Source of the DNA: Herbaspirillum seropedicae
GTDB taxonomy: Bacteria > Pseudomonadota > Gammaproteobacteria > Burkholderiales > Burkholderiaceae_D
Assembly: GCF_001040945.1 (NCBI RefSeq)
Contig: NZ_CP011930.1
Coordinates: forward strand, 4,955,021 to 5,019,020
Length of the DNA: 64,000 nucleotides
Direction: 5' to 3'
Made by a program: the position numbers and the translations under genes. Position 1 is the first letter of the stretch. Every line of letters starts with the position of its first letter. Below are positions 1,516 to 31,162 of this stretch, in pieces. The notes below the pieces were generated by a model. It had not been told where the DNA came from, searched no databases, and worked only from the letters and a program-made list of their open reading frames with translations.

Positions 1516-2916
1516 TTACTTGCCGATACAGAAGCGCGAGAAGATCACGCCCAGCAGGTCATCCGGCGTGAACTTGCCGGTGATGCTGGAGAGGCGCTCT
1601 TGTGCCAGCCGCAGCTCTTCGGCAAACAGGTCCAGCGCGTGTTCGCCGGCCTCGTTGTCCAGCGCCGCATGGGCGGCGGCGTGGGCCAGGTGTTCATCGG
1701 CCGCCTTGAGCGCCAGCAGATGGCGTTCACGCGCCAGGTAGCGCGACTCCACCGTCTGTTGCCAGCCGGCGATGCGCAGCAGTTCGGCGCGCAGCAGGTC
1801 CACGCCCTGCCCTTCGGAGGCCGACAGGTAGACGTGGGTGGCGTCGGGCATCTTGTCCACCGCCGCCTTGTGACCGGAGCGGTCGATCTTGTTCCAGATG
1901 CGGATGATGGGCACGCCGTCGGGGAAACGGGAGGTGATCTTTTCATCTTCCAGGGTCGGACCACGGTCGGCGTCGAGCATGTGCAGGATGACGTCGGCCT
2001 TGGCCACTTCGGCCCAGGTGCGCTCGATGCCGATGCGCTCGACTTCGTCCGGACCGCTGCCATCGTCACCCGCCTCACGGATGCCGGCAGTGTCGATGAT
2101 GTTCAGCGGCATGCCTTCGATCTGGATGGTCTGGGTGACCTTGTCGCGGGTAGTGCCGGCGATCGGGGTGACGATGGCGACATCGGAGCCGGCCAGTACG
2201 TTCAACAGCGATGACTTGCCCACGTTGGGCTTGCCCGCCAGCACGGCATTGAGGCCGTCACGCAGCAGGGCGCCCTGGGCGGCGTGCTTGAAGACCTCTT
2301 CCAGCGTGCTGCGGATGGTGGCCAACTGGCCACGGGCATCGCTTTGCTTGAGGAAGTCGATCTCTTCCTCGGGGAAGTCCAGGGTCGCTTCCACCAGCAT
2401 GCGCAGCCGCGTGACCTGGTCCACCAGCTCGTGGATGACCTTGGAGAATGCGCCGGAGAGCGACTCCGAGGCCGACTTGGCCGCTGCCTCGGTGGTGGCT
2501 TCGATCAGGTCGGCCACGGCCTCGGCCTGGGCCAGGTCGATCTTGTCGTTGAGGAAGGCGCGCTGGGTGAATTCACCCGGCTCGGCCAGGCGCAGGCCGA
2601 TCTCGCTGCCGGCCTGCACGCAGCGCGCCAGCAGCATCTGCATCACCACCGGGCCGCCGTGGCCCTGCAGTTCCAGTACGTCTTCGCCAGTGTAGGAATG
2701 CGGCGCCGGGAAGTGGATCGCAAGGCCCTGGTCGATGGCGCTGCCGTCTTCGTTCAGGAAGGGCAAGTAGGTGGCATGGCGCGGCGCCAGGCTGGCGCGG
2801 CCGCACACGGCCTGGATCACCGGCGCCAGGTTCTTGCCGGAAAGGCGGACCACGCCGATGCCGCCGCGTCCCGGGGCGGTGGCGATGGCGGCGATGGGGG
2901 AAGAATCGAAAGTCAT
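1516..2916 (-). CDS. mnmE: tRNA modification GTPase MnmE
   Basis: The protein has 466 aa. With MnmG it installs the carboxymethylaminomethyl group on U34 of tRNAs reading NNA/NNG codons. The N-terminal tetrahydrofolate-binding domain begins [15 protein letters not shown]; the G domain has GKPNVGKSS (228-236), the TPIAGTTRD switch, DTAG (about 275) and NKID. The chain ends in CIGK, whose cysteine is conserved in the family. The open frame extends 64 codons upstream, but homology begins at the ATG at 2916, and the extra part would run through the yidC terminator. It is the last member of the rpmH-rnpA-yidD-yidC-mnmE series. Confidence 0.98.
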
Positions 2917-3011
2917 CTGCGTCTGCTTTTTTGTTGTGATGGAAGCTCGCCGCATCCCCCTTCGGGATGGGCCAGCCTGACAATGGTAAACCTGCCTGCC
3001 CGCTACGACCG

Positions 3012-3042
3012 AAAAAAAACCCGTGGATTCCACGGGTTTTTC
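3012..3042 (-). terminator. Terminator between yidC and mnmE
   Basis: A perfect nine-base stem, AACCCGTGG/CCACGGGTT, with a three-base loop sits between A and T runs and so could work in both directions. It lies just after yidC, so full read-through into mnmE is not certain and mnmE may have its own promoter near 2920-3010. Confidence 0.8.
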
Positions 3043-3065
3043 CTTTGATGGCAGACCTGTGGGTC

Positions 3066-4763
3066 TTACTTGGTCTTGCCGCTCTCGATGTTGCGGGTGA
3101 TCACCCACTGCTGCGCGATCGAGAGGATGTTGTTGGTCACCCAGTACAGCACCAGGCCGGACGGGAAGAAGAAGAACATGAACGAGAACACCAGCGGCAT
3201 GAACATCATCACCTTGGCCTGCACCGGATCCGGCGGGGTCGGGTTGAGCTTGGTCTGCAGGAACATCGAAGCAGCCATGATGATGGGCAACAGACCGATG
3301 GGCATGTTGAAGTACGGGATGGTGCCGAACAGGCGGTCAGGCGCGGTCAGGTCATGCACCCAGCCCAGCCAGGGCGCGCCGCGCATTTCCACCGACGCCA
3401 GCAGCACCGAGTACAGCGCGATGAACACCGGGATCTGGATCGCGATGGGCAGGCAGCCGCCCAGCGGATTGATCTTCTCGGTCTTGTAGAGCGTCATCAT
3501 CTCGCGGTTCATGGCCTGCGGATCGCCCTTGTGGCGCTCGCGGATGGCTTGCATCTTGGGCGAGACCGCCTTCATCTTGGCCATGCTCCGATAGCTGGCC
3601 GCCGACAGCGGGAAGAAGATCAGCTTGATCAGCACGGTCAGCAGGATGATGGTCCAGCCCCAGTTGCCGACGATGTTGTGGATATGGGTCATCAGCCAGA
3701 AGATGGGCTCGGCGATCACGGTCAGGTGACCATAGTCGCGCACCAGGTCCAGGCCCGGGGCGATCGCCTGCAGGGTCTTGGAGACGGTGGGGCCGGAATA
3801 CAGCTGGCTGTCCATGGTCACGCTGGCGTTGGGCGCGACCGTGCCCAGCGGCAGGATGGAGCCCACGGCGTACAGGTTGTCGCCCACCTTCTTGCTGAAG
3901 ACGTCGCGCTGCGCGTTCTGCGGCGGGATGAAGGCCGACACGAAGTAGTGCTGCACCATGGCGATCCAGCCATTGTCGGTCTTGTTGACGTGCTGCTGCT
4001 TGCCGTTGGCGATCTTCTCGAAGTCCAGCTTCTCGAAGTGCTCGCTGTTGCTGTAGACGGCCGGACCGGTGAAGGTGCTGTAGAAATGCGATTCGCCGCC
4101 CGGCTTGTTGCCGTCGCGCACCAGCTGCAGGTACAGCGAAGGATTGATGGCCGCACCGGTGGTGTTGGTCACGGTGTGCTTGACGTCGATCAGGTAGCTG
4201 TCGCGCTTGAAGGTATAGGTCTTGGTCAGCTTCACGCCACCCTGGTCGGCCACCAGCACAAGCTGGATCTCATTGCCATTGTCCAGCGTGCGCGGGCCGG
4301 CCTGGGCAGTGAAGATGGTCTTGTGGTTGGGGAAGGGACCGCCGATCAGGCCCGATTCGGCCAGGTACATGTGACCCGGTTCGGAATCGAACAGCACGAC
4401 GTTCTTGGTCGGATCGACCACGTCGGGTTGCTTGAGCAGCTCCAGGCGCTTCAATTCACCGCCCACGGTATCGATGCTGGCCTTGACCAGATCGGTGGTG
4501 ATGACGATGGTTTCGCCCTTGGTGGCGGTGGCGGCGACGTCAGCCCCCGGCACGGCGCCCGGCGCCGGCGTGCCTGCCTGCGGAACCGGGGAGCCCGTCG
4601 GGCTGGCAGTGGGCGCGGCCGGATTGGCGGCGGCTTGCTCCTGAGTCGGGTTGGCCGACGGGAAGAACATCGACTGATGTCCGTTATGGCGCATCCAGCC
4701 ATCCCAGAGCAGCAGCAGGGAGAAGGAGAATACAACCCACAGGACGGTACGTTTGATATCCAT
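3066..4763 (-). CDS. yidC: Membrane protein insertase YidC
   Basis: The 565-aa inner-membrane insertase/foldase works alone or with SecYEG to place membrane proteins such as F0 subunit c. The N-terminus [20 protein letters not shown] is the first membrane segment. A large periplasmic domain follows (about residues 90-340), with a proline/alanine-rich linker before it. The C-terminal five-helix core includes [16 protein letters not shown] and the NPLGGCLP motif. The start at 4763 matches the family; the longer open frame would run into yidD. Order and direction with yidD, rnpA and rpmH are the classic bacterial arrangement. Confidence 0.98.
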
Positions 4764-4779
4764 ATGCGTATTGATGAGT

Positions 4780-5142
4780 TCAGGAGTGGCTGCAACCGTC
4801 AGCGGCCACAGGGGGAGAAACCCGCGCAGCAACAGGCTGCGACGAAGGAAGCGGGGATTTGGACGAACCAGACGAATCGGACGAGGAAGCGCCGCCAGAC
4901 TGGGCCATCGCATGCGCACGCGCCTCCGGCGAACCAGGCACCAGGTCCAGCCCGCCGGGATGCCAGGGATGACACTTGCACAGGCGCTTGCCCGCCAACA
5001 GGCTGCCCTTGAGGGCGCCATGCACGCGCACCGCCTCGGCGGCGTAATCGGAACAGCTGGGATAGAAACGGCAATTCTGCCCCAGGAACGGGCTCACTCC
5101 CAGCTTGTAGGCACGTAACAGCAGGAGCAAAGGCGTCTTCAT
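4780..5142 (-). CDS. yidD: Membrane protein insertion efficiency factor YidD
   Basis: The protein has 120 aa from the ATG at 5142; an in-frame GTG directly before it (5145) is an alternative start. YidD is a small peripheral membrane protein that assists YidC-dependent insertion. The signature [15 protein letters not shown] and the later CHPWHPGG are intact. After about residue 85 the chain becomes a serine- and proline-rich tail longer than in E. coli (85 aa), with no visible domain. It sits 17 bases after rnpA and 16 before yidC, so it is surely co-transcribed with them. Confidence 0.95.
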
Positions 5143-5159
5143 CACTTCCTATTTCCTGG

Positions 5160-5573
5160 CTATTTCCTGGCGAACGCGGGGGCGTTCGGCAAGAAAGCGA
5201 ACAACTGCCTCAGTTCGGCATGCAACATCGCCTTGAGGGCGGCGCTGCGGGCCGGGTCGCGCCTGGCATTGACCGGCCGCGACAGGCGCACGATGCAGTC
5301 CACGGCGGGCAGCTCGGCCTGGCGGAACAGCTCGCGGGTGGCGCGCTTGATCGTGTTGCGGGTCACCGCACGCGGCGCCAGCCGCTTGGCGGCGACCACG
5401 CCCAGGCGAGCCTGGGTCAGGCTGTTGCGGCGCGCATACAACACGAAATGCTCGGTACGATGCACCGGGCGCAAACGAAAAACGGATGAAAACTCATCCG
5501 TTTTAACGATTCGCCGATCGCGTGGGAAGTCGCCTGCTTGACGTGCTGGAAGCGGTAAACGGACGTCCGTCAC
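5160..5573 (-). CDS. rnpA: Ribonuclease P protein component
   Basis: The 137-aa product is the protein subunit of RNase P, which helps the catalytic RNA remove 5' leaders of tRNA precursors. The RNR-type signature is seen as AVTRNTIKRATRELFR, with the basic LGVVAAKRLAPRAV strand before it. The start is a GTG at 5573. The first 18 or so residues are variable in the family, so a slightly later start cannot be excluded. It follows rpmH by 27 bases. Confidence 0.96.
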   Translation of the reverse strand: MTDVRLPLPARQAGDFPRDRRIVKTDEFSSVFRLRPVHRTEHFVLYARRNSLTQARLGVVAAKRLAPRAVTRNTIKRATRELFRQAELPAVDCIVRLSRPVNARRDPARSAALKAMLHAELRQLFAFLPNAPAFARK

Positions 5574-5600
5574 ACGAAACGGCAGCGCAGATGCGCTGGC

Positions 5601-5738
5601 TTAAACTGCAGCCAGACGCTTGCGGCCCTTGGCGCGACGGGCGTTGATCACGGCACGGCCGCCACGGGTTGCCATACGGGCGCGGAAACCATGGGTACGC
5701 TTGCGACGCACGACGGAAGGTTGGTAAGTACGTTTCAT
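5601..5738 (-). CDS. rpmH: 50S ribosomal protein L34
   Basis: The 45-aa basic protein starts [18 protein letters not shown] and contains [20 protein letters not shown], nearly invariant in L34 of the large ribosomal subunit. It heads the minus-strand group rpmH-rnpA-yidD-yidC-mnmE. In most bacteria dnaA lies divergently just upstream; here the upstream 1.15 kb has no gene and is followed by prkA, so the locus has been rearranged or dnaA moved elsewhere. Confidence 0.98.
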
Positions 5739-27224: not shown

Positions 27225-29351
<2,127 letters not shown>

Positions 29352-29411: not shown

Positions 29412-29988
29412 CTATCCACACCGCCTGTGGATAACTTTGGGGACAAGTGCCTCTTGACATGCCCTCATGCAGTCTGGATGCGGCTTCCAGCAAGATGCCC
29501 AAATCCGGGTCAAAAAATTAGCCCTTTAAAATCAATGACTTGCAAGCGCGCCTCGATCATCGGAAAAAAAATTTGCTCATGCGGATTGCGCAGACTTCAA
29601 ACGCTTTTCATGTGTATAAGTCACGTTCCGATTCCGGTCGGCTATCGATTTGTCAAGAGCTCGCCGACAAAAAATGATCGGCTTTTCTGGCCGGAAATGT
29701 CGCCGCTTGTCCTACAAACTTAAAGTAAACCTTCAAACACGCCGGTAAACAACGGTTTTGTAAACGGTTTTACGTCTTATGCACACGCCCTGTGGATAAC
29801 TTTGTTGACAAGTGGGGCTTGACAAGTCCGAGAGTCACGGCAGCCGCGGCTTTCAGCTCATCCGCCCCCTGCCGGCGGTAAAATTACCCTAATAAAATCA
29901 ATGACTTAGAACATCATTTCGGCTGCAGTTTTCCAATGCCAATAAATTTTATTCTCAATTGGAAAACTGGCCGGTATGTGCATAAGTC
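29412..29988. other. Candidate replication origin: duplicated DnaA-box module
   Basis: The 716-bp priA-hemE gap contains five exact TTATNCACA boxes: 29426-29434, 29611-29619, 29777-29785, 29791-29799 and 29977-29985. A one-mismatch box lies at 29412-29420. Ordered elements occur twice at an offset of 365-366 bases: TGTGGATAACTTTG (29426, 29791), GACAAGTG (29442, 29807), CTTGACA (29453, 29818), AAAATCAATGACTT (29528, 29894) and ATGTGNATAAGTC (29610, 29976). The AT-rich stretches could be unwinding sites. This looks like an oriC or a related DnaA-regulated locus. Against it, hemE and the atp operon on the right would be transcribed toward it. Confidence 0.6.
29926..29969. repeat. Inverted repeat around an AT-rich core
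   Basis: CAGTTTTCCAAT (29926-29937) and its exact complement (29958-29969) flank a 20-base AT-rich segment. It lies inside the second DnaA-box module, next to the box at 29977-29985. It could be a DNA-unwinding or protein-binding element of the candidate origin. Confidence 0.6.
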
Positions 29989-30067: not shown

Positions 30068-31162
30068 TCAGGCGCGCAAGGCGCGGCTGAATTCATGCAC
30101 AGCCTGGACCAAGGTCGTGACCGCCTCCGGCGGGGTGTGCTGGGAGATGCCGTGCCCGAGGTTGAACACATGGCCGCTGCCCGCGCCCGGACGCCCGAAG
30201 GACTCAAGCAGCTTGCGCACCTCGGCGCGGATAGCGTCGTCGCCGGCGAAGAGCACGTTGGGATCGAGGTTGCCCTGCAAGGCCACCTTGTCGCCCACGC
30301 GCTGGCGCGCCTGGCCGAGGTTGACGGTCCAGTCCAGCCCCACGGCGTCGGCGCCGATGGCGGCGATCTGTTCCAGCCACAGCCCGCCGCCCTTGGTGAA
30401 GACGATCACCGGCACCTGCTGGCCACCCTGCTCGCGCTTGAGCTGGCTGACCACCTGCTGCATATAGGACAGCGAGAATTGCTGGTAGACGCCATCGGCC
30501 AGCGCCCCACCCCAGGTATCGAAGATCATCACCGCTTGCGCACCCGCATCGATCTGGGCGTTGAGATAGGCGGCGACGGCGTCGGCATTGGTCCTGAGGA
30601 TGTGGTGCATCAGGTCGGGGCGGCTGTAGAGCATGCTCTTGACCAGGCGGAAGTCATCCGAACCACCGCCTTCGACCATGTAGCAGGCCAGCGTCCAGGG
30701 ACTGCCGGAAAAGCCGATCAACGGCACCCGGCCATCGAGCTCGCGGCGGATCTGGGTGACCGCCTTGAAGACATAGTCGAGCTTGCCCAGGTCGGGCGCG
30801 CGCAGCGCCTTGACGGCGGCCTCGTCACGCAAGGGACGCTGGAACTTGGGCCCCTCGCCCTCGGCGAAGTACAGGCCCAGGCCCATGGCGTCGGGCACGG
30901 TCAGGATGTCGGAGAAGAGGATGGCGGCGTCCAGCGGATAACGTTCCAGCGGCTGCAGCGTCACTTCGGTGGCGTAATCCGGGTTGGTGGCCAGGCCCAT
31001 GAAGGAACCGGCGCGCGCGCGCGTGGCGCGGTACTCGGGCAGATAGCGGCCGGCCTGGCGCATCAGCCACATCGGGGTGTAGTCGGTGGGCTGGCGCAAC
31101 AGGGCGCGCAGGAAGGTATCGTTTTTGAGCGGAGCGAAGGTGGACATAGAAGAGGAAGACAT
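30068..31162 (-). CDS. hemE: Uroporphyrinogen III decarboxylase
   Basis: The 364-aa cytoplasmic enzyme decarboxylates four acetate side chains of uroporphyrinogen III to give coproporphyrinogen III in heme synthesis. The signatures [16 protein letters not shown] (first conserved arginine loop), [14 protein letters not shown] and [13 protein letters not shown] are complete. An ATG five codons later (31147) is an equally possible start; neither has a strong ribosome site. It stands alone between the DnaA-box region and a divergent pheC-like gene. Confidence 0.97.

What the first reader, a model, noticed from the sequence alone, without database searches (positions are those of the whole stretch)
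29412..29988. Duplicated DnaA-box module between priA and hemE: candidate chromosomal origin
Five exact TTATNCACA boxes lie within 560 bases. At least five sequence words recur in the same order at an offset of 365-366 bases, and an AT-rich core is flanked by a 12-bp inverted repeat. Such order and spacing conservation is unlikely by chance and is typical of replication origins or DnaA-titration loci. The neighbourhood (atp operon 4 kb away, priA, rpmH set 24 kb away) is also the kind found near oriC. Against it, hemE and atp would be transcribed head-on to a rightward fork, and mnmG, rsmG, parAB and dnaA are not nearby.
Basis: partly seen in the sequence, partly recalled or inferred. Interest (0 to 1): 0.8.

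Follow-up and report, generated by a model that had tools for sequence, protein, structure and literature searches.

The report
Twin datA-like replication brake, not origin
Between the genes priA and hemE this bacterium carries two tandem copies of a DNA module (DnaA box, IHF-type site, DnaA boxes at fixed spacing) that recurs between the same two genes in nearly all relatives examined, lies half a million bases from the likely replication origin, and is predicted to bind DnaA and IHF and so, like E. coli's datA, probably restrains new rounds of chromosome replication.

Summary
Five exact DnaA boxes (0.46 expected) form two copies of one module 365-366 bp apart. dnaA is about 525 kb away on a 5.51 Mb contig, cumulative GC skew still falls past the site, and the antipode of the only dif-like match is 5.458 Mb. 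Each module reads: DnaA box, 78 bp, IHF consensus, 107-108 bp, DnaA box II, with a weak box 12 bp before II and an inverted box 14 bp after. It recurs in 75 of 77 hemE-priA spacers. A pattern from it hits 39 of 396 phylum genomes, none outside the class, with no reversed-control hits. It matches E. coli datA, but not the DARS1, DARS2 or oriC regions, and 3 of 3 fetched datA-length hits lie beside queG, the datA neighbour. Box-to-IHF distances differ by about one helical turn between families. Best reading: a doubled datA-type element that predictably binds DnaA and IHF and lowers ATP-DnaA. The box triad equals the DARS core, so a reactivating role remains possible. No binding was tested.

The parts
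29412..29420 (+). module A, inverted box I (CTATCCACA, 1 mismatch)
   Evidence: DnaA-box score peak at +14 of box II
29426..29434 (-). module A, DnaA box II (TTATCCACA, exact)
29438..29446 (-). module A, weak box III (TTGTCCCCA), 12 bp before box II
   Evidence: sequence; score peak at -12 of box II
29530..29542 (+). module A, IHF consensus AATCAATGACTTG (WATCAANNNNTTR)
   Evidence: sequence
29611..29619 (-). module A, distal DnaA box b1 (TTATACACA, exact)
29777..29785 (+). module B, inverted box I (TTATGCACA, exact)
29791..29799 (-). module B, DnaA box II (TTATCCACA, exact)
29803..29811 (-). module B, weak box III (TTGTCAACA), 12 bp before box II
   Evidence: sequence
29896..29908 (+). module B, IHF consensus AATCAATGACTTA
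   Evidence: sequence
29926..29969 (.). 12-bp inverted repeat (arms 29926-29937, 29958-29969) inside module B; role unknown
29977..29985 (-). module B, distal DnaA box b1 (TTATGCACA, exact)
27225..29351 (-). priA, downstream neighbour
   Evidence: NCBIfam hit
30068..31162 (-). hemE, upstream neighbour
   Evidence: NCBIfam hit

Best explanation
The priA-hemE spacer carries two tandem copies of a conserved module with datA-type architecture that is predicted to bind DnaA and IHF and likely lowers ATP-DnaA after initiation, so that it would act as a brake on replication rather than as the origin. Shown by sequence: box b1, a single IHF consensus, weak box III and box II, in fixed order, direction and near-fixed spacing; conservation across families; the same box-IHF-box arrangement in E. 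coli datA; the distance from dnaA. Inferred: IHF binds the site and bends it, bringing DnaA on b1 next to DnaA on III/II; [quoted passage not shown] The locus lies about 10% of the chromosome from dnaA and would be doubled early in the round, raising the brake soon after initiation. The tandem copy would raise the dose or cooperativity.
For: (1) 75 of 77 hemE-priA spacers (76 relatives plus own; 4 of the 80 loci showed no priA and were dropped) hold an IHF core (at least 6 of 7 letters) and a box II (at least 7/8) 104-113 bp apart; in the best module of each spacer, b1 scores at least 7/8 in 74 of 75 (chance 0.013 per spacer) and III at least 6/8 in 72 of 75. (2) Module pattern: 49 of 160 order genomes and 39 of 396 phylum genomes, none outside the class, 0 hits of the reversed control in both. 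(3) Among 330 held loci the pattern matches E. coli datA from box to box (L288 2745-2915) but not the fetched DARS1, DARS2, oriC or priA regions; 5 of 19 genomes of family f193 gave datA-length matches, and the 3 I fetched all lie beside queG, two of them also beside tRNA-Gly genes. (4) In the 28 families with a fetched locus, b1-to-IHF medians are 66-70 or 78-82, never 71-77, and IHF-to-II medians are 106-110 in 27 and 95 in the datA family; phase concentration R 0.81, reached by 0 of 20,000 random sets. (5) IHF alpha and beta genes are present. (6) The window's two copies are the only pattern matches in the own genome. (7) The locus is 525 kb from dnaA; in 11 of 11 single-contig genomes (own included) whose match was confirmed beside priA it lies within about 10% of the chromosome from dnaA. 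Per PMC5742627 (passages) datA is at 4.39 Mb and oriC at 3.92 Mb, its essential boxes share one direction, the IHF site lies between boxes 2 and 3, and box 4 is not essential in vivo.
Against: No binding, hydrolysis or initiation data. The triad III-II-I has the spacing (12, 14) and orientations of E. coli DARS1 and DARS2, not of datA (inverted box at +12). IHF-to-II is 107-108 here, 95-96 in datA (at the lower edge of the pattern's gap range) and 98 to what I take as IBS2 of DARS2. The weak box sits beside II, whereas in my reading of datA the weak box sits beside the other high-affinity box. Synteny differs from datA (priA, not tRNA-Gly/queG). Most class genomes lack an exact match (20 of 281 matched the stricter pattern), and 14 of 19 f193 genomes were missed too. 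Two of 77 spacers lack the IHF site plus box II (L179, L191). E. coli has no such module upstream of priA.
Confidence: 0.55

Rival explanations
1. It is a DARS2-type DnaA-reactivating element: head-to-head DnaA on boxes I and II releases ADP, helped by IHF bending, and raises ATP-DnaA.
For: The III-II-I triad has the same offsets (12, 14) and orientations as E. coli DARS1 and DARS2; score peaks at exactly -12 and +14 over 135 modules; box I scores at least 6/8 in the best locus of 22 of 28 families; the site I take as DARS2's IBS2 has the same orientation about one helical turn nearer the core.
Against: Box I, needed for head-to-head contact, scores at least 6/8 in only 37 of 75 Burkholderiales spacers while b1 is kept in 74 of 75; E. 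coli DARS2 boxes IV-VI are reported dispensable (PMC4245941, passages); the locus is near the origin, unlike DARS1/2 (positions in PMC5742627); the pattern does not match DARS2.
Confidence: 0.25
2. It only titrates DnaA, without catalysing a nucleotide change.
For: Five exact boxes in 560 bp; DnaA boxes gathered near the origin are proposed to titrate DnaA in E. coli (PMC12371093, abstract and passages).
Against: Titration needs neither one IHF site nor helically phased spacing, both of which are conserved.
Confidence: 0.1
3. It is a DnaA/IHF-controlled promoter region of priA.
For: It lies upstream of priA in 10 of 21 non-own class loci and beside priA and/or hemE in 25 of 27 order loci.
Against: 11 of 21 non-own class loci show no PriA next to it, and it sits on different sides of nth (named by eye) in L278 and L282; the distance from box II to the inferred priA start varies from 49 to over 400 bp.
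Confidence: 0.06
4. It is the chromosomal origin.
For: Box cluster, AT-rich spacer, atp/priA/rpmH neighbours; the skew floor is broad and its lowest bins (5.10-5.24 Mb) are nearer the site than dnaA.
Against: The skew still falls by about 0.1 after the site; dif antipode and distance to dnaA/mnmG; the same arrangement is the non-origin datA in E. coli; another cluster of five exact boxes in about 1 kb lies 6 kb from dnaA.
Confidence: 0.04

Closest known systems
E. coli datA (DDAH element)
   Same: Two DnaA boxes in one direction flanking a single IHF site in the same orientation, an inverted box just after the second, intergenic, about 10% of the chromosome from the origin; matched by the pattern.
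   Different: Longer arms (78 and 107-108 bp against 66 and 96), inverted box at +14 not +12, weak box beside the second box, locus priA-hemE not tRNA-Gly/queG, two tandem copies.
E. coli DARS2 / DARS1
   Same: Triad of boxes III-II-I with identical offsets and orientations; IHF site in the same orientation about one turn further from box II than the site I take as DARS2's IBS2.
   Different: The exact box beyond the IHF sites of DARS2 points the other way, and boxes IV-VI are reported dispensable; box I is lost in about half of the Burkholderiales spacers; near the origin; Fis sites not tested.
DnaA-box clusters of Bacillus subtilis and Streptomyces (described as datA analogues in PMC5742627, passages)
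   Same: Non-origin DnaA-box clusters reported to restrain initiation.
   Different: The passage names no IHF-centred phased architecture for them; sequences were not compared here.

Membership tests
datA (DDAH) | Two high-affinity DnaA boxes in one direction flanking one IHF site | tested here: met
   Both modules; 74 of 75 spacers keep b1 once anchored on IHF site and II
datA (DDAH) | Spacing of box 2, IHF site and box 3 | tested here: inconclusive
   78 + 107/108 bp here, 66-67 + 95-96 in datA and its fetched orthologues; same pattern, not the same lengths
datA (DDAH) | Essential low-affinity box 7, same direction | tested here: inconclusive
   A weak same-direction box lies 12 bp before box II; E. 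coli box 7 coordinates were not in the passages read
datA (DDAH) | Early-replicated, origin-proximal position | tested here: met
   525 kb from dnaA on 5.51 Mb
datA (DDAH) | datA gene neighbourhood (tRNA-Gly, queG) | tested here: not met
   priA and hemE instead; so not a positional orthologue, only datA-type
datA (DDAH) | IHF-dependent hydrolysis of DnaA-bound ATP | not testable with these tools
   IHF alpha and beta genes present; activity unknown
DARS | Boxes I, II, III at conserved offsets, box I inverted | tested here: met
   Both own modules; but box I scores 6/8 or more in only 37 of 75 spacers
DARS2 | IHF and Fis sites required for activity | tested here: inconclusive
   IHF consensus present; Fis sites not tested
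DARS | ADP release from DnaA | not testable with these tools
oriC | At the skew minimum, opposite dif | tested here: not met
   the minimum is broad, but the skew falls on after the site
oriC | Near dnaA or mnmG | tested here: not met
   525 kb and 505 kb

The most novel reading that the evidence does not exclude
The module is the ancestral DnaA-state switch of Gammaproteobacteria (including the former Betaproteobacteria): one IHF-bent element with a datA half (b1-IHF-II) and a DARS half (III-II-I) that could both hydrolyse and recharge DnaA, from which the separate datA and DARS2 loci of enterobacteria were split; Oxalobacteraceae doubled it.
Probability: 0.2. Interest if true: 0.85.

Novelty: new variant of a known kind. 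Interest (0 to 1): 0.68.

Why it matters
datA and DARS are described in E. coli; the passages read call DARS2 conserved in gamma-proteobacteria related to E. coli (PMC4245941, PMC8682772). A datA-type element kept beside priA through Burkholderiales would mean that locus-based control of DnaA is far older and wider, and it gives exact sites to delete in tractable beta-proteobacteria. The phased spacing over many families is a natural mutagenesis series for how IHF bending positions DnaA. The half-datA, half-DARS layout makes the question of how these opposing loci arose testable. In my searches no held paper has DARS2 with betaproteobacteria and none has the phrase datA locus with DnaA and betaproteobacteria; the top rows listed showed no title on this element. 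Only the top rows of those lists were seen, and most subscription papers are not held.

Tried and rejected
Origin: rejected. The sampled skew alone (80 x 20 kb) first left room for a minimum near 5.03 Mb, just right of the window; denser cover moved the lowest bins to 5.12-5.24 Mb in raw skew and 5.10-5.16 Mb in gene-strand-corrected third-position skew, neither at the site nor at dnaA. On re-checking this I raised the origin rival from 0.03 to 0.04 and lowered the priA-promoter rival from 0.07 to 0.06.

A symmetric partner at about +525 kb (two boxes at C1:525156 and 525326) looked like an inversion scar, but the module does not recur there: taken as coincidence.

A structured RNA: only a sub-threshold isrK match, 17.7 bits against 50.

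DARS2-type as first choice: held for some time because of the triad, then lowered when box I proved optional and b1 nearly universal.

Not searched for: Fis sites, parAB, rsmG, SeqA-type control. A planned pattern search of the whole E. coli chromosome could not be run, so 'only datA matches' is shown for the five fetched E. coli regions alone.

Full report
Setting. The window is C1:4955021-5019020 of a single-contig genome of 5,509,723 bp. The closest named HemE relatives are Oxalobacteraceae (Herbaspirillum, Noviherbaspirillum, Collimonas). priA (27225-29351) and hemE (30068-31162) are both on the minus strand, leaving a 716-bp spacer.

Observation. The sequence elements that the finding names are present. 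The five exact boxes exceed the shuffle mean of 0.46. The genome has 63 such boxes. Read in the hemE-to-priA direction, the spacer is two copies of: b1 (TTATGCACA or TTATACACA), 78 bp start to start, AAGTCATTGAT (the reverse of an IHF consensus), 107-108 bp, TTATCCACA (box II). A weak box III begins 12 bp before II, and an inverted box I begins 14 bp after II.

Not the origin. dnaA starts the contig and mnmG is at 5.490 Mb, 525 and 505 kb from the site. A single dif-like match (3 mismatches, motif recalled) lies at 2,702,865, so its antipode is 5.458 Mb. In the densely covered 4.64-5.51 and 0-0.56 Mb, cumulative skew is -0.076 at the site's bin, falls to about -0.17 at 5.12-5.24 Mb, stays between about -0.12 and -0.16 until 0.28 Mb, and then rises. 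Third-position skew corrected for gene strand is lowest at 5.10-5.16 Mb and then nearly flat. So the floor is broad, its lowest bins lie between the site and dnaA, and neither method puts it at the site; scrambling of the origin region is my inference. Another box cluster (five exact boxes in about 1 kb, with TAG repeats) lies at 5,502.6-5,503.7 kb, 6 kb from dnaA, and is the likelier origin (inferred).

Conservation at the locus. HemE was used to fetch 80 relatives. 76 have priA downstream; 4 do not and were dropped (L129, L134 and L154 end within 530 bp of hemE; L175 has other sequence). Adding the own spacer makes 77. An IHF core plus box II at 104-113 bp occur in 75 of 77; the two without are L179 and L191. 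Taking the best module of each of the 75, b1 scores at least 7/8 in 74, III at least 6/8 in 72, and box I at least 6/8 in 37. In an earlier count on exact boxes only (74 box pairs in 53 of the 77 spacers) an exact IHF consensus in the right orientation was in 59 of 74, against 0.55 expected. Tandem doubling is seen in most Oxalobacteraceae spacers; Undibacterium and Keguizhuia have one copy and Roseateles L184 has three. Related species are not independent.

Conservation beyond the locus. A strict pattern with variable gaps hit 20 of 281 class genomes. A relaxed one hit 49 of 160 order genomes and 39 of 396 phylum genomes, with no hit outside the class. The reversed-pattern control gave 0 in all three. 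Of 21 non-own class loci, 10 have PriA alongside and 11 do not. Of 27 newly fetched order loci, 25 have HemE and/or PriA alongside. Because patterns require exact boxes, these prevalences are lower bounds.

Geometry. Over 135 modules selected on an IHF core and an exact box II, the mean DnaA-box score (of 8) is 6.36 at -12 on the same strand and 5.3 at +14 on the opposite strand, against background means of about 2. The own modules are in that set twice, and part of the loci had been fetched with a pattern that required AAG before box II. By family (the 28 families with a fetched pattern match), b1-to-IHF medians fall at 66-70 or 78-82 and nowhere between, though 54-84 was allowed; where two IHF cores fitted (L278: 62 or 81) the script took the larger. 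In many Oxalobacteraceae second copies 57-58 occurs. Steps of about 10.5 bp suggest selection for helical phase. E. coli DARS2 loses more activity on 5-bp than on 10-bp shifts of its IHF sites in one direction (PMC4245941, passages).

Link to datA. In E. coli K-12, datA reads TTATCCACA, 66 bp, AACCTATTGAT, 96 bp, TTATTCACA, then an inverted box 12 bp on. Scanning all 330 held loci, the pattern hits datA from box to box, and none of the fetched DARS1, DARS2, oriC or priA regions, nor any other sampled stretch of the own genome. In the phylum panel, 5 of 19 genomes of family f193 gave datA-length matches (170-172 bp); I fetched 3 of the 5, and all lie beside queG (77-85% identical to E. coli's), two with tRNA-Gly genes and one with orn. 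So a pattern whose gap ranges came from Burkholderiales retrieves the true datA, at the lower edge of its second gap.

Link to DARS. The III-II-I triad equals the core of E. coli DARS1 and DARS2 in offsets and orientation (the rule is stated in PMC5742627, passages). This is the strongest evidence against a pure datA reading. It is outweighed, in my judgement, by box I being optional in Burkholderiales while b1 is nearly universal, and by origin proximity. Which 9-mers are E. coli datA boxes 2, 3, 4 and 7, and which IHF-like match is DARS2's IBS2 (98 bp from box II; the other, 82 bp, would be out of phase), is my inference from the sequence and the papers' description.

Position. One search located dnaA in 21 genomes that I picked because their match lay on contig 1. 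Of these and the own genome, 14 are single-contig. In the 11 whose match was confirmed beside priA (own, G414, G285, G343, G307, G334, G390, G313, G179, G102, G027) the module is within about 10% of the chromosome from dnaA (sizes of all but the own are rounded to 0.1 Mb, circles assumed). The other three, with unchecked neighbours, lie at about 10% (G338), 37% (G400) and 41% (G382).

Conclusion. A doubled datA-type control module, very likely a DnaA/IHF binding complex, probably a replication brake; direction of its effect on DnaA untested.

Literature seen: passages of PMC4245941, PMC5742627, PMC10950094, PMC4585315, PMC8682772; outline, abstract and passages of PMC12371093; the top rows of the listings, and the empty answers. 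None reports this element in what I saw.

Noticed in passing
G000 C1:5502633-5503660 (L033 6380-7920): Likely true oriC: two copies of a minus/plus box pair 158 bp apart, 861 bp between copies, with TAGTAGTAG-type repeats, 6 kb from dnaA.
   Followed up: partly
window 1516-5732: rpmH, yidC and mnmE, often next to dnaA (recalled), lie about 0.55 Mb from dnaA here, in one block with atp/priA/hemE, suggesting a rearrangement near the origin.
   Followed up: partly
G000 C1:2222352-2222374 (L319): A lone inverted DnaA-box pair with the box II/I geometry (1 mismatch) without an evident IHF partner; possible DARS1-like site.
   Followed up: partly
G000 C1:4438479-4438657 and C1:5423501-5423588: Two other clusters of three exact DnaA boxes each.
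   Followed up: no
G635 (three matches) and G066 (L271, L284, L285): Genomes with three copies of the module, in G066 at three separate loci.
   Followed up: no
L278 and L282: In two different families the module lies next to nth (endonuclease III, named by eye), on different sides of the gene.
   Followed up: no
L328, L329, L330: In family f132 the module lies between an FKBP-type protein frame and a small membrane-protein frame (named by eye), near tRNA-Asp and tRNA-Val genes, with an inverted box I (7/8).
   Followed up: partly
window 29926-29969: Perfect 12-bp inverted repeat between b1 and the IHF site of module B only; purpose unknown.
   Followed up: no
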